A stretch of DNA of 64,000 nt from Solirubrobacter pauli (GTDB taxonomy: Bacteria > Actinomycetota > Thermoleophilia > Solirubrobacterales > Solirubrobacteraceae), in assembly GCF_003633755.1 (NCBI RefSeq), contig NZ_RBIL01000002.1, forward strand, positions 434,001 through 498,000. The letters run 5' to 3'. How positions within the stretch are numbered: the stretch's first letter is position 1; every line of letters begins with the position of its first letter. Made by a program: the position numbers and the translations under genes. A model generated the notes under the pieces. That model saw only the letters and a program-made list of their open reading frames with translations, was not told the DNA's origin and ran no database searches. Shown one piece after another: positions 1 to 63,267 of this stretch.

Positions 1-1
1 G

Positions 2-100
2 GCGGCGGTGATCGCGGCCTATGACGACCTCGAGCCGGCGAACCTGGACGAGGAGACCCTCGCCCTGGCCCACCGGCTCGAAGCGGAACGCAGGCCTTAG
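2..100 (+). CDS. C-terminal fragment of an unrecognised protein
   Basis: Only the last 32 codons and the TAG stop are in the window; the gene enters from the left edge. The visible tail is acidic and probably helical, ending in EAERRP. Its stop overlaps the stop region of the convergent DUF3618 gene by a few bases. There is no motif that identifies a family. The frame is supported only by being open to the edge and ending neatly against the convergent gene. Confidence 0.5.
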   Translation, partial: AAVIAAYDDLEPANLDEETLALAHRLEAERRP

Positions 101-648: not shown

Positions 649-1055
649 TGGATGTCCTCCTTCACGGTCTCAACGGTTTGGGGTGCGGGCGGCGTGGCCT
701 TCTGGATCGCGTTCTTGCCCGCGAGTCCGAGGACGGCGGCGAGCGCCAGCCACAGCAACGTCACGATCAGCGCGGCCAGCCAGAGCGGCAGGAAGCTGTC
801 GAGGACGATGATCAGGAACGCGGTGAGCGCTCCGAGCCCGAGGAGGGCGACGACGGCCGCGCCGGCAAGCATGCCGGCGCCCTTGCCCGCGACCTTGCCC
901 TTCTCGGTGACTTCGGCCTGCGCCAGCTTGATCTCCTGGCGCACGAGCGTGGAGGTCTGGCTCGCCAGATCCTTGACCAGCTCGCCGAGGCCCTTGTCGC
1001 GGGGGTCCGGCTCGACGGCGCGAGCGCCCCCGTTGGTGGGGTCGTGGGTGGCCAT
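612..1055 (-). CDS. Actinobacterial holin-like (phage holin superfamily III type) membrane protein
   Basis: The 147-residue protein has a short polar N-terminus, an amphipathic helix carrying LVKDLASQTSTLVRQEIKLA (about residues 22-41), then two hydrophobic helices (about 55-80 and 85-112) and a polar C-terminal tail. This is the layout of the actinobacterial Holin-X family, whose members usually sit between DUF3618 and ElaB/YqjD-like genes, exactly as here. No lysis gene is nearby, so a phage lysis role is unlikely and a cell-envelope role is inferred. The ATG at 1055 lies 5 nt after the stop of the upstream gene. The reading frame stays open further upstream, but that part is antisense-like and lacks family similarity. 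Confidence 0.75.
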   Translation of the reverse strand: MATHDPTNGGARAVEPDPRDKGLGELVKDLASQTSTLVRQEIKLAQAEVTEKGKVAGKGAGMLAGAAVVALLGLGALTAFLIIVLDSFLPLWLAALIVTLLWLALAAVLGLAGKNAIQKATPPAPQTVETVKEDIQWAKTQTGSAAR

Positions 1056-1060
1056 GGGAT

Positions 1061-1726
1061 TCAGCGGGTGTAGTCCTCGCGGCGGATCGGGATGTCCCCG
1101 GCCGCTGCGCCCGGATCGGTCACGACCGTGCCCGCGCGCGGCGGCTGGCCGGTGCCGCCGACGGGCGGCACGCCGGTGCCGGTCCCGGGCGGGTCGATCA
1201 TGTCGTCCGCGGCGAGGCCGGTGCGGCTGGTCGGCGCGCCCGCGGTCAGGCCGGGGCTCGTGGTCGGCGGCCGGTAGCCGCCGTTGCTGCCGGTCCCGCG
1301 CGTCTCGTAGCGCCGCGTGCTGGACGCCTTCAGGAAGCGCGAGGCCGCGAAGCCGAGCGCGACGCCGCCGGCGATGACGGCCCACGGCTGCCGACGACCG
1401 AAGTCCTCCAGGTCCTGGAGGATCGTGTCGCCGTCGGAGCGCTGCAGGTAGTCGCCGAGCGACTCGGCGCGCTGTGCGGCCTGCTCGGCGAGCTTGGCGG
1501 GCTGGTCCTTGCCCTGCTCGCGCAGCTGGTCGGCGACGCTGCGGATGTCGGACGCGGTCGAGCTGACCTGCTCGCCGGCCTGCGTCGAGCGCGTGTCGAC
1601 CTGCTCACGGACCCGGCTCGCGGCCTGGCCCTTCGCCTGCTGCGCCTTCTCCGCCGCCTTTTCCTTGGCTTGATCGGTGGTGGAGCTCGGCCCATTGGCC
1701 GAAGCGGTTCCCCCAAGAGTGCTCAT
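1061..1726 (-). CDS. Tail-anchored helical stress-type membrane protein
   Basis: The protein has 221 residues. It opens with a Lys/Ala/Gln-rich coiled segment (about residues 15-110), has a hydrophobic stretch with PWAVIAGGVALGFAASRFLK at about 122-141, and then a Pro/Gly/Thr-rich, probably disordered and exposed tail. This combination resembles the YqjD/ElaB-like first member of holin/DUF3618 operons. The ATG at 1726 was chosen because the helical domain begins there; the upstream open frame is Pro/Arg-rich noise. It is the first gene of a three-gene leftward operon (1726 to 97) and is divergent from Mn catalase. Confidence 0.65.
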   Translation of the reverse strand: MSTLGGTASANGPSSTTDQAKEKAAEKAQQAKGQAASRVREQVDTRSTQAGEQVSSTASDIRSVADQLREQGKDQPAKLAEQAAQRAESLGDYLQRSDGDTILQDLEDFGRRQPWAVIAGGVALGFAASRFLKASSTRRYETRGTGSNGGYRPPTTSPGLTAGAPTSRTGLAADDMIDPPGTGTGVPPVGGTGQPPRAGTVVTDPGAAAGDIPIRREDYTR

Positions 1727-1826
1727 GGCCGGTGGGGCTTGCCAACCGCAGCGGTCGGCACTCGTGACTGGTAGGAGTCCTGACGCCGACCCGTCATGCG
1801 TCTGAGACGTGGGTAGGGGTCCGGAC

Positions 1827-2768
1827 ATGATCCTCCGTATTGACCGCTGGCAGACCGAGCTGCCGCCTCCCTCGACGCCGGACCCCGCGGGCGCCGCGAC
1901 CGTCCAGGAGCTGATGGGCGGCAAGTTCGGCGAGATGTCAACGCTGATGAACTACACGTTCCAGTCGTTCAACTACCGCTTCCGCCAGGGCACGCGGCCG
2001 TTCTACGACCTGATCGCGAACATCGCCGCGGAGGAGTACGGGCACATCGAGCTCGTCGCCGCGACGATCAACACGATGCTCACGGGCGTGGACATCCGTG
2101 ACGTCGAGAGCGAGGCGTACAAGCACCACTACAACTTCGGTGGCAAGGGTGCGCTTCCGGCCGACTCACACGGCACGCCGTGGACGGGCGATTACGTGCA
2201 CTCCTCGGGCGACCTCGTCGAGGACCTCACTCACAACTACTTCCTCGAGACGGGCGCCCGCTCCGGCAAGCTGCGCGTGTATGAGATGTGTGACCATCCG
2301 GCGGCGCGTGCGCTGACCGGCTACCTGCTCGTGCGCGGTGGCGTCCACCAGGTCGCGTACGCGCGCGCGCTCGAGAAGCTCACCGGCGCGGACATGTCCA
2401 AGCTGTTCCCGTCGCCGCGCATCCCGACGGCGAAGATCCCCGAGTGCCAGCCGCACATCGAGGCCGGGGAGCACAAGAAGCTGTACCGCTTCTCGCCCGA
2501 GGACTACCGCGAGGTGATCGCGGTCTTCAACGGCCCGCACCCGGAGACGGGCGAGGACCTCGAGGTCGTCGACCACGCGCCGGAGGGCTTCCCGCCGCAG
2601 GACCTGCCGCCGGAGACCGACGTCTTCGCGCCGGACTACGCGCCTGAGGAGATCGCCGAGATCGCCCAGAAGCTGCGCAAGGCCGCCGGCCTCCCGGACA
2701 AGGTCACGGGCATCGTGGCCAACGACGACGACGGCCTCGTCTCCAAGGTCAAGGACAAGCTCTCTTAG
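1827..2768 (+). CDS. Manganese catalase
   Basis: The 313-residue protein is a ferritin-like dimanganese catalase, which disproportionates hydrogen peroxide in the cytoplasm. The five metal ligands expected from characterised Mn catalases can be placed at Glu36, Glu70 and His73 (AAEEYGHIE), Glu141 (NYFLETGAR) and His174 (GGVHQVAY), with family-typical spacing. The C-terminal part (after about residue 230) is the usual Pro/acidic extension. I chose the ATG at 1827, which begins the conserved MILRIDRWQTELP motif, over a GTG 18 nt upstream; a GGGGT sequence precedes it. It is transcribed away from the membrane-protein operon, with which it may share a stress-responsive intergenic region. Confidence 0.93.
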   Translation: MILRIDRWQTELPPPSTPDPAGAATVQELMGGKFGEMSTLMNYTFQSFNYRFRQGTRPFYDLIANIAAEEYGHIELVAATINTMLTGVDIRDVESEAYKHHYNFGGKGALPADSHGTPWTGDYVHSSGDLVEDLTHNYFLETGARSGKLRVYEMCDHPAARALTGYLLVRGGVHQVAYARALEKLTGADMSKLFPSPRIPTAKIPECQPHIEAGEHKKLYRFSPEDYREVIAVFNGPHPETGEDLEVVDHAPEGFPPQDLPPETDVFAPDYAPEEIAEIAQKLRKAAGLPDKVTGIVANDDDGLVSKVKDKLS

Positions 2769-2786
2769 AGAGGGACAGTCCCTCTT

Positions 2787-4178
2787 TCAAGAATCGAAGC
2801 CCAGCCCGAGGCGGTCGAGCGTGCGCAGCCAGAGTCCTCTCCGGCCCGCGTTGCGGTCGGCCGCCGCGAGCCGGCCGCGCGTGTACTGGATGACCGCGTA
2901 GCGCAGCGGCTCGGGCGGGAACGGGATCGGCTTGCTGCGCACGTAGCGCGTGCGGGTCGCGTCCGTCATGCGTCCGTCGAGGACGTCCACCGCGGTACGC
3001 CCGCCGAAGCGCGCGGCCGCCACGCCCAGGCCGGTGTACCCCGTCGCGTACGCGAGCCGGCCCTGATGTGCAGTGCCGAAGAACACGCTGAAGCGGCTGC
3101 TGGTGTCGATCGCCCCGCCCCAGCGATGGGTGAAGCGCGTGCCCTCAAGCTGCGGGAACGTGTGGAAGAAGTGCTGGGCGAGCGTGGCGAAGGTGGCGTC
3201 GTGCTCGTCGTGGCGCGGGCCGACCGGACCCTTGTAACGGTAAACCGCGTCCCACCCACCGTAGAGGATGCGGCCGTCCCGGGTCCGGCGGTAATAGTGG
3301 AACTGGTTGCCACCGTCACCGATGCCCTGGCGATTGGCCCACCCGACTTCCCGTAAGTCCACAGGCTCGGTCATCAGCGCGTAGTCGTACACCGGCACGA
3401 CGTAGCGCTTGATGGCCCGCAGCAGCGGCGGGTAGGCGCTCGTCGCCAGCAGCACGCGGCCCGCCTTCACCCGGCCCTGCGCCGTCAGCACGTGCAGGTC
3501 GTCGGTGACGTGGTGGGCGGCGGAGTGCTCGTAGATGCGGACGCCCGCGCGCAACGCGGCGTCGCGCAGGCCGAGCGCGAGCTTGCCCGGGTCCAGGATG
3601 CCGGCGCCGGTGTGGTCCCAGACGCCACCGAGGTAGGTGGGGGAGGCGACCTGCGCCTGCATCGCGGCCTGGTCGAGCACGGTGACCTCGTGGCCGAAGC
3701 GCGTGAGCAGCTCGCGCTCCTCCTCCAGCCACGGCAGCTGGTACTCGTCCGTCAGGGCCAGCAGCTCGCCGGTGGCCTCGAAGTCGCAGTCGATGCCGTG
3801 CGTCTGGAGGTCCGCTCGGAGGCCGTCGAAGTTCTCCAGCGCGAGCCGCTCCAGGACCGGCATCTCCTCGGCGAACCGCGCCATGCCGTTGTCGATCCCG
3901 TGGGTGAGCGACGCGACGACGAAGCCTCCGTTGCGCCCGCTGGCGCCGAATCCGGCGGTCTCGGCCTCCAGCACGACGACGTCCTTGCCCTGCTGCGCGG
4001 CGTAGAGCGCCGCCCACAGCCCGGTGAAGCCACCGCCGACGATGCACAGGTCCGCGGACGTGGCCTCCGTCAGGGCCGGCGTCGGGGCGTGCGGCGTCCG
4101 TAGCCAGTACGAACGCGGCTCCGCGTCCCGGTAGCTCGCCCGGTGCGCGTCGGTGGGCGCGGTGGTGGGCCAGGGCAT
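2787..4178 (-). CDS. FAD-dependent oxidoreductase (DAO family, gamma-glutamylputrescine/amine oxidase-like)
   Basis: The protein has 463 residues. The Rossmann FAD-binding motif CIVGGGFTGLWAAL lies at about residues 46-59, preceded by the N-terminal SYWLRT segment typical of PuuB/OrdL-like D-amino-acid-oxidase-fold enzymes. The GASGRNGG motif follows at about 80, and the C-terminal TGYTGLGVAAARFGG motif completes the FAD site. Family members oxidise amines or N-methyl amino acids to aldehyde/imine plus peroxide. The ATG follows the stop of the amidase by 3 nt, so the two form an operon. Together they could degrade an amide- or amine-bearing substrate, but the substrate cannot be read from the sequence. 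Confidence 0.85.
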   Translation of the reverse strand: MPWPTTAPTDAHRASYRDAEPRSYWLRTPHAPTPALTEATSADLCIVGGGFTGLWAALYAAQQGKDVVVLEAETAGFGASGRNGGFVVASLTHGIDNGMARFAEEMPVLERLALENFDGLRADLQTHGIDCDFEATGELLALTDEYQLPWLEEERELLTRFGHEVTVLDQAAMQAQVASPTYLGGVWDHTGAGILDPGKLALGLRDAALRAGVRIYEHSAAHHVTDDLHVLTAQGRVKAGRVLLATSAYPPLLRAIKRYVVPVYDYALMTEPVDLREVGWANRQGIGDGGNQFHYYRRTRDGRILYGGWDAVYRYKGPVGPRHDEHDATFATLAQHFFHTFPQLEGTRFTHRWGGAIDTSSRFSVFFGTAHQGRLAYATGYTGLGVAAARFGGRTAVDVLDGRMTDATRTRYVRSKPIPFPPEPLRYAVIQYTRGRLAAADRNAGRRGLWLRTLDRLGLGFDS

Positions 4179-4181
4179 CCG

Positions 4182-5507
4182 CTACCGCAGCGCCTCGGCG
4201 AGCTGGAGCAGCGCGAGCTCGCCGCGATGGCGGCCGACGAGCTGCAGGCCGACGGGCAACCCGCTCGGGGTGAACCCCGCCGGCACGGCCAGGGCGGGGT
4301 GGCCGGTGACCGTGATCCGGCTGCAGGAGCGGAACCACTCGAGGTAGGAGCCCATCCGCTGCCCGGCGATCTCGGTCGGGTACTCCAGGTCGACGCTGAA
4401 CGGCGCGACCTGCGTGACGGGTGCGGCCAGGAAGTCGTAGCGGGTCAGGAACTCGCGCATCCGGGTGAACAGCTCGCCTCGGAGGGCGAGCGCCTTCGCG
4501 ATCCGCGCCGCGTCCAGGTGCTGGCCGAAGCGGATGTTCGCCCGCAGCGTCGGCTTGACGTCGTCGATGATGTCCTCGAAGGCGGCCGCGAACCCGACGC
4601 CGCGCAGCACCTCGAAGCACTCGTCGGCGCCGCTGAAGTCCGGCTCCGCGTCCTCGACGACGCAGCCCAGGTCCTCGAGCGCGGCGCGCGCCGTCTGCAG
4701 GACGGCGGTGACCTCGGGCTCGACGGGCAGCCCGCCGAGCGTCTCGCTCCAGGCGATCCGCAGACCCGCCGGGTCCGACCGCAGGTCGGCGGGGAGCGGC
4801 CAGGGCTCCTGGATCGAGAGCGGGTCGCGGGTATCGGGGCCGGCGAGGGCCGAGAACAGCAGCGCGACGTCCTGCGGCGTGCGGGCGATCGCCCCGAGCA
4901 CCGGGAACGGGTTGTACGGATCGCCAGGGCCATGGTCCGGGATCCGGCCCGGCGTGGGGCGCAGGCCGTAGAGGCCGCAGAACGCGGCCGGGTTGCGCAC
5001 GCTCGCACCCAGGTCGGAGCCGTCGGCGAACGGGATCATCCCCGCCGCGACGGCCGCCGCCGCGCCGCCGCTCGACCCACCCGGCGTCCGGGACAGGTCG
5101 TACGGGTTTCGCGTCGCGCCGAACACCGGGTTGAACGTCTGCGAGCCGGCGCCGAACTCGGGCGTGTTCGTCTTGCCGATGATCACCGCACCGGCCTGCC
5201 GCAGCCGCTCGACCAGCAGCGAGTCGCTCGTCGGCACGTGCTGGGCGAACAGCGGCGAGCCGTAGGTGGTGCGCATGCCCGCCGTGTCCTCGAGGTCCTT
5301 GACGGCGATCGGCAAGCCCTGCAGCGGGCCAGGCGGCGCCTCGTCGGCGGCCTTCAGCGCGAGCTCGGGATCCAGCTGCGTGACGATCGCGTTCACGAGC
5401 GGGTTCATCTCCTCGATCCGCTCGAGGTGGCTCTGCATCACCTCACGCGCGCTGAGCTCCCGGGCGCGGATGCCCGCGGCGAACTCCGACGCGGATCGCC
5501 CCCACAC
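4182..5507 (-). CDS. Amidase signature (AS) family amidase
   Basis: The protein has 441 residues with a complete Ser-cisSer-Lys set: Lys70 in LPIAVKD, the GGSSGG loop at 143-148 with the cis-Ser, and Ser169 in GSDLGASVRNPA. The last differs from the usual GSDTGGSIR by Leu and Ala at two neighbouring positions. The closing APVTQVAPF and HPALAVPAG motifs also fit. It hydrolyses a carboxamide; the substrate is unknown. The GTG at 5507 is chosen because the N-terminal helix with SASEFAAGIRARELSAREV starts there. No strong ribosome-binding site is visible, and the frame stays open to 5666, so the start is uncertain. It is the first gene of an operon with the FAD oxidoreductase. Confidence 0.87.
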   Translation of the reverse strand: MWGRSASEFAAGIRARELSAREVMQSHLERIEEMNPLVNAIVTQLDPELALKAADEAPPGPLQGLPIAVKDLEDTAGMRTTYGSPLFAQHVPTSDSLLVERLRQAGAVIIGKTNTPEFGAGSQTFNPVFGATRNPYDLSRTPGGSSGGAAAAVAAGMIPFADGSDLGASVRNPAAFCGLYGLRPTPGRIPDHGPGDPYNPFPVLGAIARTPQDVALLFSALAGPDTRDPLSIQEPWPLPADLRSDPAGLRIAWSETLGGLPVEPEVTAVLQTARAALEDLGCVVEDAEPDFSGADECFEVLRGVGFAAAFEDIIDDVKPTLRANIRFGQHLDAARIAKALALRGELFTRMREFLTRYDFLAAPVTQVAPFSVDLEYPTEIAGQRMGSYLEWFRSCSRITVTGHPALAVPAGFTPSGLPVGLQLVGRHRGELALLQLAEALR

Positions 5508-17140: not shown

Positions 17141-18157
17141 ATGGCGCTGATCGCATCGGCCCGGGAACGCCCGTTCGGCGCCGACGAGCTCTTCATGTGG
17201 ACCACGGACCCGGCCGGGCGCTTCGTCGCGGCCGACGCCGTGTTCGCGCGGTTGACGGGCTACGGGCGGGAGGCGATGCAGGGGCAGACGCACGCGTTCG
17301 TCCGGCACCCGGCGATGCCGGTCGCGCTGCTGCCGCCCCAGCCGGGGCCGATGTACGTCCGCTACCTCGCCGAGGACGGGGCGAGCTTCTGGGCGCTCGT
17401 CCTGAGCGTGCCGGTGGCCGCGGGGGTGGCCGGGGTCGGCTTCAAGCCGGCCGGCGCGCCGTTCGATGCCGCGCGCGAGCGGCTGCAGGCGGCGCGCGAG
17501 GCGGAGCTGGCGGGGGAGGCGGTCGCCGTGCCCGACTTCCGCGCGGCGTTCGTGGCCGAGATGTCCGCGCGACCGGCGGCGCGGGACGCCGAGCTCGAAG
17601 CCGCCGCGCGGCGGCTCGCTCGCCTGGACGAGGCGTTCGCCGGCGCGGAGCGCAAGCGCGCGTTCGTGGAGGAGCTGGCGGAATCGATCCGGCTGTTCGC
17701 GTTGAACGCGATCCTGGCCGCGCACCGGCTGGCCGACTCGGCGGCGATCGGCGCGGTCGCCGGGCTGCTGCAGACGCGGTCCGACGCGGCCGTCCCGGAC
17801 CTGCTCGCGCTCAGCGGCGAGATCGAGCGGGTGGCGGCGGCGCACGCGGAGGCGCGGTTCGCGGTCGCGGCCGCGCAGCTCCTGGCCGCGCACCCCCAGA
17901 CGGGGGAGGCCGCGGCGGTGGCGCGCGCGGCCGTCGCGCGGACCGTCGGGACGCTGGACGCGGCGCTCGAGCAGCTCGGCGCGGCGGTGGCGACGATCGA
18001 CGGCCACTTCAAGACGATCCGCTTTCTCGAGCTGCAGGGCCGAATCGAGGCCGCCCGGGCGACGGACACCGGGCACGTGCTGACGCTCTTCGAGGAGATC
18101 GGACGTCAGGTACGGCTCGCCGGTGCCGAGCTCGCCGCGTTCGGGGCGCTGCGCTGA
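17141..18157 (+). CDS. Aer-like PAS protein with degenerate signalling domain (paralogue 1)
   Basis: The 338-residue protein starts with an Aer-type PAS (about residues 8-110: ELFMWTTDPAGRF, LTGYGREAMQGQTHAFVRHP). It is followed by helical segments with two stretches that resemble decayed chemoreceptor tips: RLFALNAILAAHRLAD (about 186) and FLELQGRIEAARATDTG (about 290). No transmembrane segment, HAMP or methylation-type region is evident. Compared with the next gene it lacks most of the region after HPxMP that contributes to the flavin pocket in Aer. It may be a cytoplasmic redox or energy sensor that does not use the standard CheA/CheW interface. The ATG at 17141 is the first start fitting the PAS N-terminus. 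Confidence 0.7.
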   Translation: MALIASARERPFGADELFMWTTDPAGRFVAADAVFARLTGYGREAMQGQTHAFVRHPAMPVALLPPQPGPMYVRYLAEDGASFWALVLSVPVAAGVAGVGFKPAGAPFDAARERLQAAREAELAGEAVAVPDFRAAFVAEMSARPAARDAELEAAARRLARLDEAFAGAERKRAFVEELAESIRLFALNAILAAHRLADSAAIGAVAGLLQTRSDAAVPDLLALSGEIERVAAAHAEARFAVAAAQLLAAHPQTGEAAAVARAAVARTVGTLDAALEQLGAAVATIDGHFKTIRFLELQGRIEAARATDTGHVLTLFEEIGRQVRLAGAELAAFGALR

Positions 18158-38992: not shown

Positions 38993-41900
38993 TTGAAAAA
39001 GCAAGTGCTGGTCACGGTGGATCGCGGCGAGACCCGCGTCGCCATGCTGGAGGCGTCAGGTGATCCGGGCGCGCCGACCAAGTCCTCACGCGGCCGGGGT
39101 GGCCGCAAGCGCAGGCCGAACGCCGTCCCCGACGGGTACCGCGTAGCCGAGATCTACTTCGAGCGCCGTGGTGGCCGCTCGATCGTCGGCAACATCTACA
39201 AGGGCCGCGTCGACAACGTGCTGGCGGGGTTGGAAGCCGCCTTCGTCGACATCGGGCTGGACAAGAACGGCTTCCTGCACGTCGACGAGATCGTGCTCCC
39301 GGGCGTGGAGCAGGCCAAGCGCGGCCGCGGCAGCGGGCCGCGGATCACGGACCTGCTGAAGCCGGGCCAGGAGATCACGGTCCAGGTCGTCAAGGATCCG
39401 CTCAAGACCAAGGGCGCGCGTCTGAGCATGGAGCTCACGATCGCCGGTCGCTACATGGTCTACGCGCCCACGGGCGAAGGGGTCGGCGTCTCCCGCCGCC
39501 TCGAGGACAAGGAGCGCGACCGCCTTCGCAAGGAGGCCAAGCAGCTGAACCTGGACGGCGGTGGCGCGATCATCCGCACCGCGGCGCACGGCGCCACGCG
39601 GGCGGATTTCGAGCGCGAGCTGCAGTACCTGTTCAAGCTCAACGAGGTTCTCGAGAAGCGCGTCAAGGAGACCACGGCGCCCGCGCTCGTGTTCCAGGAG
39701 GCCGACCTCTCGGTCCGCGTCGTGCGCGACATCTTCTCCGAGCACTTCGAGCGCGCGGTCGTCGACGACGAGCTCGCGCACCACCGGCTCGTCTCGTTCT
39801 TCACGCGCACCGCGCCCGAGCTGGTCGACCGCGTCGAGCTCTACGACGGCGAGGACCCGCTGTTCGAGGCCTACGGCGTCGACCCGGTGATCAACGGCAT
39901 GCTCGAGCGGCGGGTGGACCTGCCCAGCGGCGGCTACCTGATCATCGACTACGCCGAGGCGCTGACCGTCATCGACGTCAACACGGGGTCGTTCACCGGC
40001 AAGGGCAAGAGCGCCCGGCTCGAGGACACGATCACCCAGACGAACCTCGAGGCCGCGGAAGAGGCCGTGCGCCAGCTGCGGCTGCGCGACATCGGCGGCA
40101 TCATCGTCATCGACTTCATCGACATGGCGCGGTCGCGCAACCGCGACGCCGTGCTGAAGGTCCTGCGCAAGTCCCTGGACGAGGACCGCACGAAGACCTT
40201 CGTGGTCGAGATCTCGCCGCTCGGCCTGGTCGAGATGACGCGCCAGAACGTCACCGACGGTGTGCGCGAGATCATGACCAACACCTGCGCCGTGTGCCAC
40301 GGCGAGGGCGTGGTCAAGTCGGCGGAGACGATCGCGATCGAGTTCTCCCGCCACATCCGGCACATGGTCAAGGACGCCGGCCCGGACGGCCCCGAGGCCT
40401 ACCTGCTGCGGATCAACCCGAAGGTCACGGCGTTCTTCATCGCCGACGGCGCGCGTGAGCTGCACGCGCTCGAGGAGGAGACCGGCCGCTTCTTCCACTT
40501 CGAGGGCTCGGACGGCCTGCCGCTCGACCACTTCGCGGTGACGATGGAGGGCACGCGGTCCGAGATCGAGGAGCACGCGGTCCCGTTCCGCGCCGGCGAG
40601 GAGGTGCACGTCCACCTCGTCGAGCCGCACATGTACAACGAGGACGACGCGGTCGCCAAGGTCGATGGCTACCTGATCGACGTCGTCAACGGCGTCCACT
40701 TCGTCGGTGAGAAAAAGATGGTCCGCATCGAGGAGGCGGGGCGCACGATCGCCCGCGCGGTCCTCGTCGGCGCCGACGCCGAGGTCGCCGAGGAGGCCGC
40801 GAAGGAGCGGGAGTCCGCGCGCGAGAAGGCACAGGCCGCCGCCCGCCGCACCGCCGCCGCGAAGAAGAGCGCCGCCAAGCGCCGCCCGCGCGAGGACGAG
40901 CAGGCCGCGATCGCCACGGCGACGCTCACGGACGAGTCGCCGACCGAGGCGGGCACCGCCCCCGCGGCCGAGGACGACGCCGACGCCACGCCGCGCAAGC
41001 GCCGCCGCCGTGGCGGCCGTGGCCGCGGCCGCGGTCGCAAGACCGCCGAGGCCACCGAGACGACCACCGAGGACGTCGTCGCCGAGGACGGCGCGACCGA
41101 CGAGGACGCCCCGCGCAGCCGCTCGCGCCGCCGCCGGGGTGGGGCCGAAGCCGACGTCGACGCGGTGGCGGGCGAGGGCACGCCGCAGGACGGCTCGGCC
41201 GCGGAGGCCGAGGACGACGCGCCGCGCGGCCGCTCGCGCCGCCGCCGGGGCGCGGCGGTCGACGCCGACGTCGACGCGCCGTCCGCCGACGAGTCCGTCG
41301 AGGACGAGGCGCCGCGCGGGCGCACTCGCAGCCGTCGTGGCGCGGACGCCGCGGCCGCGCAGGCGGCCGACGAGGCCGTCGCCGCGGGCGAGGTCGTCGA
41401 GGACGAGGCGCCGCGTGCGCGTTCGCGCCGTCGCCGGGGCGCGGTCGATCCCGAGGCGGCCGCGGAGGCCGTGACCGCGGGCGAGGTCGTCGAGGACGAG
41501 GCGCCGCGTGCGCGTTCGCGCCGTCGCCGCGGGGCGGACGACGGCGACGCCGCGGCCACTCAGGCGGCCGACGACGCCGTCGCCGCGGGCGAAGTCGCCG
41601 AGGACGACGCCCCGCGTCCGCGTTCGCGCCGTCGCCGCGGTGCGGTCGACCCCGAGGCGGCCGCGGAGGCCGTCGCCGCGGGCGAGGTCGTCGAGGACGC
41701 GCCCAAGCCGCGTGCGCGCCGTCGTCGAGCCGCGGAGGACGCGCCCGTCGAGGCGGTCGCCGCGGACGAGGCCGTCGAGCCCGCCCCGAAGCCGCGGGCA
41801 CGGCGCCGCAAGCCGGCGGCCGAGACCGCGCCGGGTGAGGCGGTCGAGGCCGTCGTGGAGGACGAGCCCGTCGCGAAGCCGCGTGCGCGTCGGCGCGCTG

Positions 41901-42220
41901 CCGCCGTCGCCGACGAGGCGGCCGTGGACGGGACGCCGAAGCCGAAGGGACGGGCGCGCAAGCGGCCCGCTCCGGAGGCCGTCGCGGCCGCAGCGGAGGC
42001 CGCGGTCGGCATCGGCGACGAGGACCCCGCGCCGAAGCCGAAGGGCCGCGCGCGCAAGCGTCCGGCCGCGCTCGAGATGACGGAGGCGTCCGCCTCGCCG
42101 AGCTTCGAGGAGGACGGCGACGGCGACGCGCTATCCTCTTCGCCCCGGCGCCGTGGCCGTAGTGATGGTCGGCGCCGTTCCCGCGCGCAGGCTCAGGCCG
42201 ACGCCGAAGTCTCCGACTGA
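38993..42220 (+). CDS. rng: Ribonuclease E/G family endoribonuclease with long Arg-rich repeat tail
   Basis: The 1075-residue protein starts with TTG (MKKQVLVTVDRGETRVAML), preceded by GAGGTT overlapping the rodA end. An S1-like domain with an insertion (about 45-150) is followed by the catalytic DNase I-like domain with the magnesium-binding Asp residues in TVIDVNTGSF (about 327) and VIDFIDMARSRNRDA (about 372), then the Zn-link TCAVCHGEG (about 430). From about residue 620 the protein is a low-complexity tail of alternating acidic/Ala and Arg-rich blocks. Gene symbol rne is equally possible. It processes rRNA and mRNA. Here it sits just upstream of rplU-rpmA, a common pairing. Confidence 0.93.
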   Translation: MKKQVLVTVDRGETRVAMLEASGDPGAPTKSSRGRGGRKRRPNAVPDGYRVAEIYFERRGGRSIVGNIYKGRVDNVLAGLEAAFVDIGLDKNGFLHVDEIVLPGVEQAKRGRGSGPRITDLLKPGQEITVQVVKDPLKTKGARLSMELTIAGRYMVYAPTGEGVGVSRRLEDKERDRLRKEAKQLNLDGGGAIIRTAAHGATRADFERELQYLFKLNEVLEKRVKETTAPALVFQEADLSVRVVRDIFSEHFERAVVDDELAHHRLVSFFTRTAPELVDRVELYDGEDPLFEAYGVDPVINGMLERRVDLPSGGYLIIDYAEALTVIDVNTGSFTGKGKSARLEDTITQTNLEAAEEAVRQLRLRDIGGIIVIDFIDMARSRNRDAVLKVLRKSLDEDRTKTFVVEISPLGLVEMTRQNVTDGVREIMTNTCAVCHGEGVVKSAETIAIEFSRHIRHMVKDAGPDGPEAYLLRINPKVTAFFIADGARELHALEEETGRFFHFEGSDGLPLDHFAVTMEGTRSEIEEHAVPFRAGEEVHVHLVEPHMYNEDDAVAKVDGYLIDVVNGVHFVGEKKMVRIEEAGRTIARAVLVGADAEVAEEAAKERESAREKAQAAARRTAAAKKSAAKRRPREDEQAAIATATLTDESPTEAGTAPAAEDDADATPRKRRRRGGRGRGRGRKTAEATETTTEDVVAEDGATDEDAPRSRSRRRRGGAEADVDAVAGEGTPQDGSAAEAEDDAPRGRSRRRRGAAVDADVDAPSADESVEDEAPRGRTRSRRGADAAAAQAADEAVAAGEVVEDEAPRARSRRRRGAVDPEAAAEAVTAGEVVEDEAPRARSRRRRGADDGDAAATQAADDAVAAGEVAEDDAPRPRSRRRRGAVDPEAAAEAVAAGEVVEDAPKPRARRRRAAEDAPVEAVAADEAVEPAPKPRARRRKPAAETAPGEAVEAVVEDEPVAKPRARRRAAAVADEAAVDGTPKPKGRARKRPAPEAVAAAAEAAVGIGDEDPAPKPKGRARKRPAALEMTEASASPSFEEDGDGDALSSSPRRRGRSDGRRRSRAQAQADAEVSD
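41098..42075 (+). repeat. Intragenic imperfect repeats encoding Arg-rich blocks in the RNase E/G tail
   Basis: About eleven blocks of the form AP-x-(S/A)RSRRRRG or PKPRARRR are separated by acidic Ala/Glu/Asp/Val spacers. The longest shared spacer is AVDPEAAAEAV-x-AGEVVED, present twice nearly unchanged around 41440 and 41640. The repeats are in frame and conserve charge rather than exact sequence, consistent with a disordered RNA- or protein-binding tail. Confidence 0.75.
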
Positions 42221-49284: not shown

Positions 49285-49986
49285 TCAGTTGAGGCCGGCG
49301 CGCAGGGCGACGAGCTCGGCCCGCACGCGAGCCAGCTCGTCCTCGCCCGCGGGGAGCGCGAGCCGCAGCTCGGCGGCGCGGAGCGCGCGCGTGAGGTCTC
49401 CACGGCGCTGGAACGCGGGGACGAGGTTGTTGAGCATCCGCATCGCCGTCTGCTGCGGCGTCCACGGGCGGACGAACGCCCACGGCACGTCGCCGGCGAG
49501 CGGGAGCCCGCCGGCGAACGGGTCGAGCAGCAGCGGCTCGGCGCCGCCGAAGTGCCCGACGACGTAGTGGCCTGGCAGCCCGACGCCGGCGAGGGGGACG
49601 CCGGCGCGCCGGGCGACTTCGACGTAGACGGTCGACAGCAGGATCGGGAGCCCGCGCCGGCGCTCGAGCACGCGGTCGAGCAACGAGTTCTCGGGCCGGT
49701 CGTACTGCTCGGTGTCCCCGTGGAACCCGTGCCGCGTGCCGAGCACGTGCGTGAGCGCGCTCGCCTCCGCCTGTGGTGTGCGGTCCGCGCCGCCCAGCGC
49801 GCGGGCGACCTCCTCGCCGAGGGCGTCGAGCGTGGCCAGCGCGCCCTCCACGTCCACCGGCCGCAGCGCGGCGGCCAAGGCGAGCGCCAGCCGGTCCAGC
49901 ATCGGGTCCGTGGACGCCGCGAGGTCCTCGAAGCGAGGCAGGTCCATGCCCTGGAGTCTGCCCAGCGACGGCGCGTTCGTCGTCAC
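49285..49986 (-). CDS. SirB1-family transglutaminase-like protein
   Basis: The 233-residue protein shows the SirB1 pattern: ENSLLDRVLERRRGLPILLS (about 99-118), VYVEVARRAGVPLAGVGLPG (about 120-139) then HYVV, a DPFAGG segment and a C-terminal TPR-like RMLNNLVPAFQRRGD stretch. The catalytic Cys of true transglutaminases is replaced in this region by Leu/Ile, so enzymatic activity is doubtful. The GTG at 49986 overlaps the flgB stop (GTGA); an ATG at 49947 is an alternative. Confidence 0.8.
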   Translation of the reverse strand: MTTNAPSLGRLQGMDLPRFEDLAASTDPMLDRLALALAAALRPVDVEGALATLDALGEEVARALGGADRTPQAEASALTHVLGTRHGFHGDTEQYDRPENSLLDRVLERRRGLPILLSTVYVEVARRAGVPLAGVGLPGHYVVGHFGGAEPLLLDPFAGGLPLAGDVPWAFVRPWTPQQTAMRMLNNLVPAFQRRGDLTRALRAAELRLALPAGEDELARVRAELVALRAGLN

Positions 49987-50339
49987 GCGACGCCGAGCGC
50001 GGCCTTCACGGCGGCCCCGCGCGCCTCCTTGACCGCGACCAGCGCCTGGTACTCGAGCCCGTTGGCGGCGAGCATCGCGGACTCGGCGTCGATGTCGACC
50101 GTGCTGCCGTCGGCGCGCACCGTTCCGGCCGTGGGGTCGCGCGTCGGGGTGAAGACGGTCTCCGACGGCTTGCGGCCGGCGCCGAGCGCGGCTTCGAGCG
50201 CGCTGTGGAAGTCGACATCCTGGCGCACGTAGCCGGGCGTGCTGGCGTTCGCGAGGTTCGCGGCGAGCGCCTGATGGCGCGCCTGCGCGCCGCGGAGGGC
50301 GGCCCCGAGGGCCTGCTGTGTCACGTCTGAGAGCTCCAC
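49983..50339 (-). CDS. flgB: Flagellar basal body rod protein FlgB
   Basis: The 118-residue protein carries the flagellar rod signature LAANLANASTPGYVRQDVDF (about 26-45) and a C-terminal segment SAMLAANGLEYQALVAV that matches the conserved rod-protein C-terminal helix. Length is slightly short for FlgB (about 130). Start is GTG at 50339, or GTG at 50324, which has GGAG 9 nt upstream. It is isolated: flgC and fliE, its normal neighbours, are not adjacent. Its stop is coupled to the SirB1-like gene. Confidence 0.8.
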   Translation of the reverse strand: MELSDVTQQALGAALRGAQARHQALAANLANASTPGYVRQDVDFHSALEAALGAGRKPSETVFTPTRDPTAGTVRADGSTVDIDAESAMLAANGLEYQALVAVKEARGAAVKAALGVA

Positions 50340-50386
50340 ACCTCCGGCTTCGGCGTTCGCCGGATGTGAGTTGAATGAGAATCCTC

Positions 50387-51382
50387 TTAGGCGGCCGCGA
50401 GCGTTCGGCGGAGCGCTTCGAGCCCGCTGTGGCGCGGGCTCCAGCCGAGCTCGCGCCGCGCCTTGCCGGTGTCCATGATCATCGGGCGGCTGAGGGCCTC
50501 GCTCCACTCGAGCGCGGGTGGGGCGAACGGCAGCCCCGCCAGCGCCCGTGCCCCGGCCTGCGTCACGCGGCGGGAGGCCGGCAACGGGGCGAGCCCGAGC
50601 TCCCGGGCCACGTCGCGCGCGCTGAGCACGCCGTCGCCGGCGACGTTGTACGCGCCGGGCGGCCCGGCTCCGAGGATGCTCAGCAGCAGCGCCTGCCCGA
50701 CGTCGTCCTCGTCCACGAACTGCACCGGCAGGTCGGGCACCGCCACCGGCACGGGCAGCGGGAGCCGCCGCACCAGCGTCCCCGCGCCGCGTACGAACGG
50801 CACGAGCGGCCTCGGCACGAGGTCCTTGGCGCCGATCGTGTGCGGCCCGAGCACGATCGGCGGGCGCAGGACGTACAGCTCGAGGTCCGGCCAGGCGGCC
50901 GCCTCGTCCGCCAGCCGGCGCTCGATCTCCGCCTTCTCCTGCGCGTAGAACAGGTGCGACGCGGGCCGCACCGGCCAGTCCTCGGTCAGCGGCTGCGGGT
51001 TGTCGGCGTGGAAGCCGTACGCCGCGACCGACGACGCGTACACGAACCGCCGCGCCCCGGCGGCGGCCGCCGCGCGGAACGCGTTCAGCGTCCCGTTCAC
51101 GTTGATCGCGCGGATCGTCGCGCGCGGCGCGGTGCCGGTGATCATGAACGCCAGGTGCACCACGACGTCGGCGCCGGCGAACGCCTCCTCGAGAGCGGAC
51201 CGGTCGCGGACGTCCCCCTGGCGGTACTCGAGCTTCGTCCAGCCGTGCTCGGCCGGGTCGAACGGCCGCCGCGCGATGCCCACGACGCGCTCCACCCGCG
51301 CGTTGAGCTCGAGCAAGGGGAGCAGGCCGAACCCGAACGTGCCGGTCGGACCGGTCACGGCGACCGTGAGGCGGGAAGACAT
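50387..51382 (-). CDS. NAD-dependent epimerase/dehydratase (extended SDR)
   Basis: The 331-residue protein has the N-terminal cofactor motif VTGPTGTFGFGLLPLL (about 9-24), GDVRD, the VVHLAF segment, VYASSVAAYG (about 114-123) and a catalytic YAQEK (about 147-151). It is of the UDP-sugar epimerase-like group; the substrate is unknown. It lies between flgB and the IclR gene, in the same direction as both, without obvious coupling. Confidence 0.85.
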   Translation of the reverse strand: MSSRLTVAVTGPTGTFGFGLLPLLELNARVERVVGIARRPFDPAEHGWTKLEYRQGDVRDRSALEEAFAGADVVVHLAFMITGTAPRATIRAINVNGTLNAFRAAAAAGARRFVYASSVAAYGFHADNPQPLTEDWPVRPASHLFYAQEKAEIERRLADEAAAWPDLELYVLRPPIVLGPHTIGAKDLVPRPLVPFVRGAGTLVRRLPLPVPVAVPDLPVQFVDEDDVGQALLLSILGAGPPGAYNVAGDGVLSARDVARELGLAPLPASRRVTQAGARALAGLPFAPPALEWSEALSRPMIMDTGKARRELGWSPRHSGLEALRRTLAAA

Positions 51383-59121: not shown

Positions 59122-61104
59122 GTGAAGGAACGGATCGAGGAGCTCGCGCGGCAGCTGACGGAGCTGCGCGCTTCGTACTACGAGGGCACACCGTCGGTGG
59201 CGGACGCCGAGTACGACGCGTTGGAGGACGAGCTGCGGGCGCTGCTCGCCGAGCATCCGGAGCTGACGCCCGATCCGAACCCGCTCGAGCAGGTCGGCGC
59301 GCCCGGCGTGCTCCACGCGCCGGTCCGGCACTCACGGCCGATGCTGTCGCTGGAGAAGGCGACCAAGCCCGAGCAGGTGGAGGCCTTCATGGCCCGCTTC
59401 CCGGGCCAGCCCGTGATCGTCATGCCCAAGCTCGACGGGCTGTCGCTGGCGGTCGTCTACGAGGGCGGGCGGCTCGCGCGGGCCGTGACGCGCGGCGACG
59501 GGACGACGGGCGACGACGTGACGATGCTCGTCCGCGCGCTCGTCGACGGCGTGCCCGCGGCGGTGGCCTCCGACGGCCGCGTCGAGGTCCGCGGCGAAGC
59601 CGTGATGCTGCGGTCCACGTTCGCGGCCTACAACGAGGCGCACCCCGACAAGCCGCTGATCAACCCGCGCAACGCGGCCGCCGGCACGATCCGCGCGAAG
59701 GACCCGGCGACCGTGGCGGAGCGGCGGCTGCACTTCTTCGCCTTCGACCTGGACGCCTCCGAGGGCGCGGCGACCGACCTCGAGGAGGGCCTGCGCGCCC
59801 TGGGCTTCGACCCGGCCGGGATGCGGCACTGCGACGACGCCCCGGCCGCGCAGGAGGTCATCTCCTCGATCGAGGCCGAGCGGGCCGAGCTGGACTACGA
59901 CCTGGACGGCGCCGTGCTCCGGCTCGCCGACCGCGACGCGTTCGCGGCCGCCGGCACGCGGTCGGCCTCTCCGCGCGGCGCGCTGGCGTTCAAGTTCGCG
60001 GCCGAGGAGAAGACGACGGTGCTCAACGACGTCGTCTGGGACGTCGGCAAGACCGGGAAGATCGCGCCCGTCGCGTGGCTGGAGCCGGTGTTCGTCGGCG
60101 GCACGACGGTCACGCGCGCGACCCTGGCCAACCAGGAGGTCATCCGCGCGCGCGGCGTCAAGATCGGCGACACCGTGCTGGTGCGCCGCGCCGGCGATGT
60201 CATCCCGTTCGTGGCCGGCGTCCTCGACGAGTCCAAGCGCACGGGGGAGGAGCGGGAGATCGTCCCGCCCTCGCAGTGCCCGTCGTGCGGGGAGCCGCTG
60301 ACCGAGCGGGGCGAGTCACGCGAGCTGTTCTGCACGAACCTCGCCTGCCCGGCGCAGACCGTGCGGCGGCTGATCCACTGGGCGTCGCGCGCCGCGGCGG
60401 ACATCGAGGCGGTCGGGCCGGTGTGGATCGAGCGCCTGGCGGCGTCGGGCGACCTCGAGCACCCGTCGGACTTCTACGCGCTGACCAAGGAGCGGCTGCT
60501 CGAGTTCGACCGGATCGGCGAGGTGAGCGCCGACCGCATGATCGAGTCGATCGAGGCCTCCAAGGACGTCGGGCTGCGGCGCGCGCTGATCGGACTCGCG
60601 ATCCCGATGGCCAGCGAGGGCACTGCGGCGCGGCTCTGCCGCTCCGGCTTCAAGTCCCTCGAGGAGGTGGCCGACGCGGGCGTCGAGACGCTCGTCGCGG
60701 TCGAGGACATCGGGCCGAAGGTCGCGGAGTCGCTGACCACGCACCTCCAGCGCGTGCGCCCGGAGCTCGAGCGGCTGCGCTCGTTCGGCGTGTCGCTCGA
60801 CGTGCGCGAGGAGGACCTCCCGCCCGAGGTCGCGGCGGGCGCGCCGCTGGAAGGCAAGACCGTCGTGATCACCGGCGCGATCGCCGACCCGCGCAGCGGC
60901 GAGAAGGTCCCGCGGCCCGCGTTTCAGCGCCTCTGCGAGCGAGCGGGCGCGACGACGGCCTCCTCGGTCTCCGCCAGTACGGACATGCTGATCACTGGCG
61001 CGGACGTCGGGGCGGCGAAGATCGCCAAGGCCGAGAAGCTCGGCGTGGCGGTCGTCGACCAGTCCGAGATCTGGGAGCAAATAATCAGCGCAGGAATCGT
61101 CTGA
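59122..61104 (+). CDS. ligA: NAD-dependent DNA ligase
   Basis: The 660-residue ligase seals nicks in replication and repair. Domains in order: Ia with DAEYDALEDEL (about 29-39), adenylation domain with catalytic Lys103 in MPKLDGLS, then NPRNAAAGTIR and the LAFKFAAEEK motif (about 290), OB-fold, a four-Cys zinc finger (CPSCGEPL...CTNLACPAQ, about 386-414), helix-hairpin-helix repeats and a C-terminal BRCT domain (LEGKTVVITGAIADPRSGEK, about 575). The length is typical. The start is GTG. Confidence 0.96.
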   Translation: MKERIEELARQLTELRASYYEGTPSVADAEYDALEDELRALLAEHPELTPDPNPLEQVGAPGVLHAPVRHSRPMLSLEKATKPEQVEAFMARFPGQPVIVMPKLDGLSLAVVYEGGRLARAVTRGDGTTGDDVTMLVRALVDGVPAAVASDGRVEVRGEAVMLRSTFAAYNEAHPDKPLINPRNAAAGTIRAKDPATVAERRLHFFAFDLDASEGAATDLEEGLRALGFDPAGMRHCDDAPAAQEVISSIEAERAELDYDLDGAVLRLADRDAFAAAGTRSASPRGALAFKFAAEEKTTVLNDVVWDVGKTGKIAPVAWLEPVFVGGTTVTRATLANQEVIRARGVKIGDTVLVRRAGDVIPFVAGVLDESKRTGEEREIVPPSQCPSCGEPLTERGESRELFCTNLACPAQTVRRLIHWASRAAADIEAVGPVWIERLAASGDLEHPSDFYALTKERLLEFDRIGEVSADRMIESIEASKDVGLRRALIGLAIPMASEGTAARLCRSGFKSLEEVADAGVETLVAVEDIGPKVAESLTTHLQRVRPELERLRSFGVSLDVREEDLPPEVAAGAPLEGKTVVITGAIADPRSGEKVPRPAFQRLCERAGATTASSVSASTDMLITGADVGAAKIAKAEKLGVAVVDQSEIWEQIISAGIV

Positions 61105-61170
61105 CGGGGTACCTTGGGGTTCGAGGCCGCGCGCAGGGGTGCGGCGGCCCCGACAGTTGGGAGGTTCCAA

Positions 61171-63267
61171 TTGCAGTTGTTTCGGCTGCAGCAACGGCGG
61201 TGCCGCATCGTGGCGGCGCTGCTCGCGGCAGCTCTGAGCGCCGGCACCGCGTTGCCGGCGACGACCCTCGCCGAGCCCGGCGGCTGGGACGGGGGCATGG
61301 GCTCGAGCTCGCCCTCGTCGCAGGAGTCGAGCTCGTCGAGCAGCTCGAGTAGCTCGAGTAGCTCCTCGTCGTCCTCGGACAGCGACAGCGACAGCGACGC
61401 GTCGTCGTCGAGCTCGTCCAGCTCGTCCAGCTCGTCCGACTCGGACAGCGACTCCGGCGGCGGCTGGGACGGCTCGGTGGGTTCGAGCTCGCCCTCCTCG
61501 CAGGAGGGCAACTACGGTGGCGGCAGCAGCGACTCGTCGCCCTCGTCGCCGAGCGAGGCCGCGGACGCGGCTGGCCCGTCGTCCTCGTCCTCGTCGTCGA
61601 GCTCGAGCAGCTCGTCCTCGTCGTCGTCGCCCAGCGCGGCGGCCGACGCGGCCAGCCCGTCGGCGAACTCGGGCGTGTCCGACTCGTCCGACTCGTCCGA
61701 CTCGTCCGACTCGTCCGACGACAGCGGCTGGGACGGCTCGATCGGCTCGAGCTCGCCCTCGTCGCAGGAGTCCAAGTACGAGGGCGGCGGCGAGTCGCTC
61801 TCATCCTCGAGCGAGTCCGAGGACTCCTCGACCGACTCGTCGGCCCCGACGACCGCCATGGGCGACGTCGCCGGCCCGTCGAGCGACACATCCACGCCGG
61901 CCGCGGACACGAGCGACGACTCGTCCGCGACCGACTCGTCGGCCCCGACGACCGCCATGGGCGACGTCGCCGGCCCGTCGAGCGACACGACCACGCCGGC
62001 CGCCGAGCCGGCCGACGACAGCGGCTGGGACGGCTCGATCGGTTCGAGCTCGCCCTCGTCGCGCGAGACGCAGGACGCCACGGACGCCGACGACTCGGCC
62101 CCGGTGACCGCCATGGGCGACGTCGCCGGTCCGAGCGCGTCCACGAGCACGCCGTCGACCGACGACGACGCCCCGGCCGCCAAGGCCGAGAGCGCCGCGC
62201 CGGCCGAGGACACGACGCCGACGATGACCGCCATGGGCGACGTCGCGGCGCCGCCGAGCCACGCCGGCCCCGCCGGCGAGGACGCGGCGGACACCACCAC
62301 CACCACGGCGCCGGAGACCACCGACGCCGCACCCGCGGACGAGACGCCCGCGTACACCGCCATGGGCGACTACGCCGGCCCGTCGACGCCGACGGTGGAC
62401 GACTCGGACCTGAACATCGGTCCGAGCTCGCCCTCCTCGCGGGAGCAGCAGGAGACGCCGTCGACGATGGCGCCGTCCACCGCTCCCACGCAGAGCAACA
62501 ACCGCACGAACACCACGTCCGCCTCCGAGGAGGAGGACGACGACACGCCGGCCGCGTACACGCCGATGGGCGACTACGCGGGCCCGTACGACGTCACGGA
62601 CCCGGAGCTGACCGACACGAGCGACCCGTCGCTGCAGCAGTACGGGCCCGTGTACGACCCGTCCGAGCCCGTGTCGACCATGTCCGACGAGCCGACGTAC
62701 ACGCCGATGGGCGACCTGGCGATGCCGGGCACGCAGGCGCAGACGCCGAGCTCGACCTCGGTCCTGACCGGACCGGAAGAGGGCGTGGGCGTGTCGCTGA
62801 CCGGCGCGTTCGGCCCGTACGGGGCGACCGTCGGCGGCTCGATCGACAAGGACCGCGTCGCGGTCTCACTCGGTCCGGCGGCCGGCTACGGCCTGTCCGG
62901 CAGCGTGGGGCCGGCCGATCCACCGGACCAGCTCCTCAGCGGGGCCGGCACGGTGTCGGGCGGCATCGGGCCCGTCGGCGGCTCGCTCGAGGTCAACACC
63001 GCCACCGGGATCACCGGGACGGTGGAGACGTCGATGGAGCACAACCCGGCGATCTCGCAGACCACCGCGCACTCGATCAACATGAACAACCAGGGCCAGG
63101 TCACCACCGACACCCAGGAGAAGGTCAACTTGGGCGTGTCGGAGGGCGTCACGGTGACCTACACGGTCACCCTCTCCATACCTCTGGACTGGGTCCAGAC
63201 GGTCGGGAACTGGGTCGGCCTCGGTGAGCCACCCCGCAACGGCCGGGTGACCGGCGGCGGGTTCTAG
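61171..63267 (+). CDS. Large secreted Ser/Asp-rich repeat protein
   Basis: The 698-residue protein starts at TTG 61171, chosen for GGGAGG 6 nt upstream, and has an N-terminal signal peptide (RIVAALLAAALSAGTALPA, cleavage near ATTLAEP). The body is low-complexity: Ser/Asp tracts, five WDGSIGSSSPSSQE-like units and seven (T/Y)xxMGD(V/Y/L)AxP units. From about residue 535 a non-repetitive Gly/Val/Thr-rich domain begins (TGAFGPYGATVGGSIDKDR, then SGAGTVSGGIGPVGGSLEVN, VTVTYTVTLSIPLDW). This resembles a beta-rich surface domain, but I recognise no family. No LPXTG anchor is visible. Its TAG stop interlocks with the urate oxidase stop. Confidence 0.7.
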   Translation: MQLFRLQQRRCRIVAALLAAALSAGTALPATTLAEPGGWDGGMGSSSPSSQESSSSSSSSSSSSSSSSSDSDSDSDASSSSSSSSSSSSDSDSDSGGGWDGSVGSSSPSSQEGNYGGGSSDSSPSSPSEAADAAGPSSSSSSSSSSSSSSSSSPSAAADAASPSANSGVSDSSDSSDSSDSSDDSGWDGSIGSSSPSSQESKYEGGGESLSSSSESEDSSTDSSAPTTAMGDVAGPSSDTSTPAADTSDDSSATDSSAPTTAMGDVAGPSSDTTTPAAEPADDSGWDGSIGSSSPSSRETQDATDADDSAPVTAMGDVAGPSASTSTPSTDDDAPAAKAESAAPAEDTTPTMTAMGDVAAPPSHAGPAGEDAADTTTTTAPETTDAAPADETPAYTAMGDYAGPSTPTVDDSDLNIGPSSPSSREQQETPSTMAPSTAPTQSNNRTNTTSASEEEDDDTPAAYTPMGDYAGPYDVTDPELTDTSDPSLQQYGPVYDPSEPVSTMSDEPTYTPMGDLAMPGTQAQTPSSTSVLTGPEEGVGVSLTGAFGPYGATVGGSIDKDRVAVSLGPAAGYGLSGSVGPADPPDQLLSGAGTVSGGIGPVGGSLEVNTATGITGTVETSMEHNPAISQTTAHSINMNNQGQVTTDTQEKVNLGVSEGVTVTYTVTLSIPLDWVQTVGNWVGLGEPPRNGRVTGGGF
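61831..61988 (+). repeat. 59-bp direct repeat within the Ser/Asp-rich gene
   Basis: An identical 59-bp sequence occurs at 61831-61889 and 61930-61988, period 99 bp (33 codons, in frame). It encodes TDSSAPTTAMGDVAGPSSDT. The exact nucleotide identity implies recent duplication or gene conversion. Confidence 0.8.

What the first reader, a model, noticed from the sequence alone, without database searches (positions are those of the whole stretch)
61171..63267. Unrecognised secreted repeat protein with two interleaved repeat types and a beta-rich C-terminal domain
Five WDG(S/G)-x-GSSSPSSQE units and seven (T/Y)xxMGD(V/Y/L)AxP units alternate with Ser/Asp tracts, then a 150-residue Gly/Thr/Val-rich domain. 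The two motif types are spaced as if they form a modular, possibly calcium-binding or phosphorylated, stalk. I know no named family with this MGDxA motif.
Basis: partly seen in the sequence, partly recalled or inferred. Interest (0 to 1): 0.6.

Follow-up and report, generated by a model that had tools for sequence, protein, structure and literature searches.

The report
Fast-evolving secreted two-part Solirubrobacter protein
This soil bacterium makes an unnamed exported protein with a long, acidic, motif-studded flexible arm and a quickly changing sheet-like end domain that appears to have been exchanged as a unit between species, found so far only in Solirubrobacter and a few relatives.

Summary
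The gene (TTG 61171–63267, +, 698 aa) encodes an exported protein: signal segment, about 500-residue acidic disordered arm, and a 165-residue beta domain. Five of six other sampled Solirubrobacter genomes carry it at the same ligA–uricase locus, with the same short motifs reshuffled (12, 19, 25, 86). No Pfam, NCBIfam, PHROG, PADLOC or PDB family matches. A profile found three distant relatives in another Solirubrobacteraceae genus, with the beta domain before the acidic repeats.

- The beta domain evolves about five times faster at the amino-acid level than its neighbours.
- Its tree contradicts both flanking genes. Identity to the sister species falls only over this domain and recovers in uricase, as if it had been exchanged as a unit.
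- The 5' leader has a hairpin conserved across species and unique to this gene.
- With eight sequences, AlphaFold gives eight antiparallel amphipathic strands plus a helix (pLDDT 73), with no significant structural match.

Most likely it is a secreted or surface protein: an entropic acidic arm carrying linear motifs, and a variable beta module doing the binding. Calcium binding and phosphorylation have no support; Pmt O-mannosylation is unlikely. Function is inferred, not shown.

The parts
61105..61170 (+). 5' leader between ligA stop and the start codon
   Evidence: 81% mean column identity across five Solirubrobacter species, kept in S. soli although the upstream gene differs there
61125..61149 (+). 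conserved hairpin GGCCGCGCGCAGGGGTGCGGCGGCC with GGGG loop
   Evidence: consensus fold with one pair kept through C-G / U-A / U-G; only occurrence in the own genome at up to 3 mismatches; one per Solirubrobacter genome that has the gene, absent from G191 that lacks it; no Rfam match
61159..61164 (+). ribosome-binding site GGGAGG
   Evidence: invariant in the leader alignment, 6 nt before TTG
61171..61272 (+). basic N-terminus and signal segment (residues 1-34)
   Evidence: only hydrophobic segment in the protein; no later window passes the transmembrane threshold
61273..62769 (+). acidic Ser/Asp/Thr/Ala/Pro-rich disordered arm
   Evidence: 83 D+E against 5 K+R in the middle region, 29% Ser
61285..61326 (+). 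W unit 1: WDGGMGSSSPSSQE
61465..61506 (+). W unit 2: WDGSVGSSSPSSQE
61546..61572 (+). third motif kind: SPSEAADAA
   Evidence: repeated in orthologues
61729..61770 (+). W unit 3: WDGSIGSSSPSSQE
61852..61872 (+). M unit 1: TAMGDVA
61951..61971 (+). M unit 2: TAMGDVA (99-bp tandem duplication with unit 1)
62026..62067 (+). W unit 4: WDGSIGSSSPSSRE
62107..62127 (+). M unit 3: TAMGDVA
62227..62247 (+). M unit 4: TAMGDVA
62254..62280 (+). fourth motif kind: PSHAGPAGE
   Evidence: repeated up to four times in the S. deserti orthologue
62356..62376 (+). M unit 5: TAMGDYA
62419..62445 (+). W unit 5 without the WDG prefix: GPSSPSSRE
62560..62580 (+). M unit 6: TPMGDYA
62701..62721 (+). M unit 7: TPMGDLA
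62770..63264 (+). C-terminal beta domain (165 residues), ends Gly-Gly-Phe
   Evidence: orthologues and three distant relatives; model of the G193 orthologue with eight strands plus helix, pLDDT 73; incongruent tree

Best explanation
An exported (probably Sec-dependent) surface or matrix protein made of two units with separate evolution. The acidic, disordered arm (about 500 residues) acts as a long hydrated spacer or brush and shows short linear motifs (SSPSSQE, TxMGDxA and others) in a charged background of weakly constrained sequence. The C-terminal beta domain is the functional module that contacts a partner (envelope component, surface or competitor); it diverges quickly and has been exchanged as a block between lineages. 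Expression is probably tuned through a gene-specific 5' leader hairpin just upstream of the ribosome site. Shown here: architecture, orthology, motif conservation, rapid divergence and tree conflict of the domain, leader conservation. Inferred: export, surface location, disorder, binding role, exchange by recombination, and regulation by the leader.
For: Signal segment and no other membrane segment, lipobox or LPXTG. Orthologues near uricase and aceE in five other Solirubrobacter genomes, directly after ligA in all but S. soli; motifs conserved while order and number change, synonymous codons varying within invariant motif residues. Beta domain pN 0.17-0.48 against 0.06-0.11 for LigA at broadly comparable pS. 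ligA and uricase trees join G000 with G190 (94/96 and 97/97); the beta-domain tree rejects that pair (AU p 0.001 DNA, 0.007 protein). G000-G190 DNA identity is 0.88 ligA end, 0.81 leader, 0.88 N-terminus, 0.75-0.82 arm, 0.74 linker, then 0.62, 0.57, 0.53 over the beta domain, then 0.87 in uricase. Distant relatives in G179 (two copies) and G182 keep domain plus acidic repeats, in other order (hhalign 92%, E 6e-7). Leader.
Against: No anchor was found, so it may be simply released. No adhesion, envelope or glycan-binding family matches. The swap was tested after the pattern was seen, with only five species and fast sites; strong acceleration in one lineage could imitate it. The domain order is not conserved in the distant relatives, which weakens 'spacer plus head'. 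The first AlphaFold run with five sequences failed (pLDDT 38).
Confidence: 0.42

Rival explanations
1. An extracellular hydrophilin-like or matrix polyanion: the acidic arm itself is the active part, holding water and cations and protecting cells in dry soil, and the beta domain only retains it in the wall or matrix.
For: Strong excess of acidic residues in all orthologues; acidic composition kept in the distant relatives while their repeats are unrelated in sequence; genus common in desert and high-UV soils (PMC10722151).
Against: Sequence-specific motifs are conserved across species, more than a bulk polyanion needs; fast change and exchange of the beta domain does not fit a mere retention part.
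Confidence: 0.25
2. A secreted polymorphic-toxin-like or contest protein whose variable C-terminal domain acts on competitors.
For: Conserved N-terminal part and leader with an exchanged C-terminal domain; amphipathic strands could be membrane active.
Against: No immunity gene: the stop codon overlaps or abuts the convergent uricase gene; no toxin family matches; the variable part is a divergent version of one domain, not unrelated domains.
Confidence: 0.08
3. A membrane-inserted beta-barrel (porin-like) of an unrecognised outer layer, with the terminal aromatic residue as an assembly signal.
For: Eight predicted antiparallel strands with strong alternation of hydrophobic residues (p below 2e-4 against within-strand shuffles); weak structural likeness to outer-membrane barrels; C-terminal F or W.
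Against: S. deserti is described as Gram-stain positive (PMC10722151); best structural Z is 7.6, in the range of chance matches, and Foldseek TM-scores are 0.35 or lower; in the distant relatives the terminal aromatic is hundreds of residues away from the beta domain.
Confidence: 0.08
4. Low-complexity by-product: Ser/Asp-coding DNA expanded by slippage, with little protein function.
For: Simple TCG/AGC repeats and a 99-bp tandem duplication; pN/pS of the arm is 0.68-1.14.
Against: Open frame, start, ribosome site, signal segment, motifs, C-terminal domain and leader are kept over five species with 79-91% identity in neighbouring proteins.
Confidence: 0.05

Closest known systems
Staphylococcal Sdr/Clf surface proteins with Ser-Asp repeats (from general knowledge)
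   Same: Exported, long acidic Ser/Asp-rich repeat arm joined to a beta-rich domain.
   Different: No LPXTG or sortase signal, no family match to any Sdr domain, the arm has specific interspersed motifs and Thr/Pro/Ala tracts, and the family was found only in Solirubrobacteraceae.
Actinobacterial secreted Ser/Thr/Pro-rich glycoproteins made by Pmt (from general knowledge)
   Same: Ser/Thr/Pro/Ala-rich exported regions.
   Different: The diagnostic PMT_4TMC domain is not found in this genome, while it is in the control Corynebacterium glutamicum; a GT-C enzyme of the YkcB/PMT_2 kind exists, so another glycosylation route is not excluded.
Polymorphic toxins and allele-swapping surface antigens (from general knowledge)
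   Same: Constant N-terminal part, exchanged C-terminal domain.
   Different: No immunity gene, single copy, the swapped versions are still homologous.
Eight-stranded beta barrels: designed TMB10, Pla, Rv0813, VapB
   Same: Antiparallel meander of about eight strands.
   Different: VIA Z 5.9-7.6 and Foldseek E above 0.01, which are chance-level; no sequence relation found.

Membership tests
LPXTG cell-wall-anchored (Sdr/MSCRAMM-like) proteins | C-terminal LPXTG, hydrophobic stretch and basic tail | tested here: not met
   No LPXTG-like motif in the last 80 residues and no transmembrane-like segment after residue 45 in any of six orthologues
LPXTG cell-wall-anchored (Sdr/MSCRAMM-like) proteins | Ser-Asp dipeptide repeat arm | tested here: inconclusive
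   Short SD tracts are present (61380-61450, 61677-61719) but the arm is mixed
Polymorphic toxin systems | Immunity gene directly downstream | tested here: not met
   Stop codon overlaps or abuts the convergent uricase gene in G000 and G188
Polymorphic toxin systems | Conserved N-terminal part with exchanged C-terminal domain | tested here: met
   Tree conflict and identity drop restricted to the beta domain, five species only, tested after the pattern was seen
Any described protein family (Pfam, NCBIfam, PHROGs, PADLOC) | Profile match at the family's cut-off | tested here: not met
Outer-membrane beta-barrel proteins | Closed transmembrane beta-barrel | tested here: inconclusive
   Eight amphipathic strands predicted but structural matches are not significant
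Pmt-dependent O-mannosylated secreted proteins | Pmt enzyme (PMT plus PMT_4TMC) in the genome | tested here: not met
   PF16192 absent from the 96.5% complete own genome, present in the control C. glutamicum
Calcium-binding (EF-hand-like) repeat proteins | DxDxDG-type sites in the repeats | tested here: not met
   No DxDxDG-type site in this protein, one in one orthologue; loose binding of calcium to acidic tracts was not testable

The most novel reading that the evidence does not exclude
The beta domain is a variable recognition module under diversifying or balancing selection (for example facing phages, rivals or kin), exchanged between species as a cassette on a conserved acidic arm, and controlled by a dedicated 5' leader RNA: a new kind of polymorphic surface system in Thermoleophilia.
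Probability: 0.13. Interest if true: 0.65.

Novelty: new variant of a known kind. Interest (0 to 1): 0.42.

Why it matters
Solirubrobacter is common in dry soils, and no description of its surface proteins turned up in the literature searches made here. A lineage-specific exported family with a swappable domain would be a concrete handle on what these cells present to their surroundings. The gene-specific leader hairpin offers a testable control element not in Rfam, and the profile built here lets others find the family.

Tried and rejected
Family libraries and PDB sequences gave nothing. The weak order-level BLAST hits L013-L020 and the own-genome hits L002 and L005 were read and look like chance matches in unrelated or wrong-frame ORFs; L003, L004 and L006 were not read. 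Rfam did not recognise the leader; single-sequence folding of the leader is not unusual (z -0.8), so the case for it rests on conservation and one covarying pair. The first structure prediction from five sequences was useless (pLDDT 38). Foldseek in PDB had no match with E below 1e-3; the single viral match with E 5.5e-4 has TM 0.19 and rmsd 17 and was disregarded. PF02366 matches were rejected as evidence of protein O-mannosylation because the control genomes ring as well and PF16192 is absent. Plasmid tblastn found nothing. The genome-contig scan with one sequence failed and succeeded with the alignment. A viral-contig scan with the wide alignment could not be run because no stretch is conserved enough. 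Literature searches found no description of the protein.

Full report
Identity and setting. The window lies in a 7.1-Mb, 4-contig genome (G000). Related loci with record titles are Solirubrobacter taibaiensis, S. deserti / sp. CPCC 204708, S. phytolaccae and S. soli. The gene stands between ligA (59122-61104, upstream, same strand) and a convergent uricase gene (PF01014), whose stop codon it overlaps.

The observation. The frame is open from TTG 61171 to the stop at 63267, GC at third codon positions is 96% in this frame, and start and ribosome site align across five species, with S. soli using ATG at the same place. There are seven T(A/P)MGDxA units and five G(S/P)SSPSS(Q/R)E units, of which four carry WDG. 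Shuffles of the arm essentially never give them. Two more motif kinds, SP(S/T)EAADAA and PSHAGP(A/V)GE, became visible only from orthologues. One M pair reflects a recent tandem duplication, but across 23 W-type and 24 M-type copies in five species the amino acids stay while synonymous codons vary, which points to selection on the protein.

Relatives. BLAST over 232 genomes of the order finds orthologues in five of six other Solirubrobacter genomes, directly between ligA and uricase in all but S. soli, where ligA lies further upstream with other genes in between, among them a histidine kinase and a MacB/FtsX permease, and a lipase-like gene follows. Two of the five (G188, G189) are near-identical genomes. 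G191 has uricase but neither gene nor leader. A profile of the C-terminal domain finds three further proteins in genus g21 of the same family: G179 (two) and G182 (one). Profile-profile comparison supports common descent (92%, E 6e-7). These proteins combine the domain with other acidic repeats (SVDAPDPTP, DDGGYGGSDVGS, SDDGRGGDTGNASNASS) and end in W or F, but carry the domain before or inside the arm. Nothing was found in 396 genomes drawn from the phylum other than the window's own, in plasmids or in the family libraries and PDB sequences.

Structure. AlphaFold failed with five sequences (pLDDT 38). With eight, and the S. taibaiensis orthologue first, it gives eight antiparallel strands and a C-terminal helix, pLDDT 73, pTM 0.61. 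Strand residues alternate strongly between hydrophobic and small/polar (1.13 against 0.49 +/- 0.13 in shuffles). Structural searches give no significant match; the best, outer-membrane-type barrels and VapB/Rv0813, stay at Z 7.6 or less, which the tool states is typical of models without a true match. So the fold is a plausible beta meander or barrel, not identified.

Evolution. LigA and uricase are 84-91% and 79-89% identical among these species; the beta domain is 37-51% identical to the window copy. At broadly comparable pS (about 0.3-0.5) its pN is 0.17-0.48 against 0.06-0.11 for LigA; pS is near saturation and biased codon use limits it, so pN/pS values near 1 should not be read as positive selection. 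ligA and uricase trees pair G000 with G190 (94/96, 97/97); the beta-domain tree instead puts G000 with G193/G188 and G190 nearer G192 and rejects the pair (AU p 0.001 DNA, 0.007 protein). DNA identity G000-G190 is high up to the linker and in uricase and drops only across the domain. The simplest reading is replacement of the domain by recombination in one lineage; strong acceleration of G190's copy is the alternative. The hypothesis was framed after seeing the distances, so the p-values are indicative.

Leader. The 66-nt leader has a core GCCGCxYGCAGGGGTGCRGCGGC that is nearly invariant, lies in front of no other gene of the own genome, and is present once in every Solirubrobacter genome with the gene. 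It is unlikely to be translated: the frame differs between species. Consensus folding gives a hairpin with a GGGG loop; one pair is U-A, C-G or U-G in different species, the rest hardly vary. A protein-binding DNA site is not excluded.

Mechanism. The protein has an export signal, no anchor, a very acidic arm and an amphipathic beta domain. I propose a secreted or loosely retained surface protein in which the arm is a hydrated spacer with linear motifs and the beta domain is the variable contact module. Calcium or phosphate are unsupported. Pmt-type O-mannosylation is unlikely because PMT_4TMC is missing, though a YkcB-like GT-C enzyme exists. A toxin role is unlikely for lack of an immunity gene. 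Function remains inference; overall it is an uncharacterised family of a known general kind with an interesting evolutionary pattern.

Noticed in passing
window 61125-61149: 5' leader hairpin specific to this gene, conserved in five species, with no Rfam match.
   Followed up: partly
window 41097-41650: The RNase E/G-like ORF (38993-42220) has a C-terminal tail of Arg-rich/acidic repeats (DEAPRARSRRRRGA type) with 93-108 bp periods.
   Followed up: no
window 49983-50387 (-): An isolated flagellar rod-type protein (PF00460, E 1e-4), FlgB-like, stands beside unrelated genes; S. deserti of the same genus is described as non-motile (PMC10722151).
   Followed up: partly
window 17405-17483: ARAGORN calls a tRNA-Sec, but Rfam at gathering threshold lists none; probably false.
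   Followed up: partly
L068 (G182) around 1-4800: The G182 relative lies a few kb from ORFs that look, by eye, like a glycosyltransferase, a multi-pass membrane protein and an asparagine-synthase-like protein, perhaps a surface polysaccharide or peptide cluster.
   Followed up: no
window 61171 and L060/L061 N-termini: Most orthologues have a cytoplasmic stretch RGPTRxEL before the signal segment and the distant relatives have ERPPTLxEL, a shared short motif that the window copy lacks.
   Followed up: no
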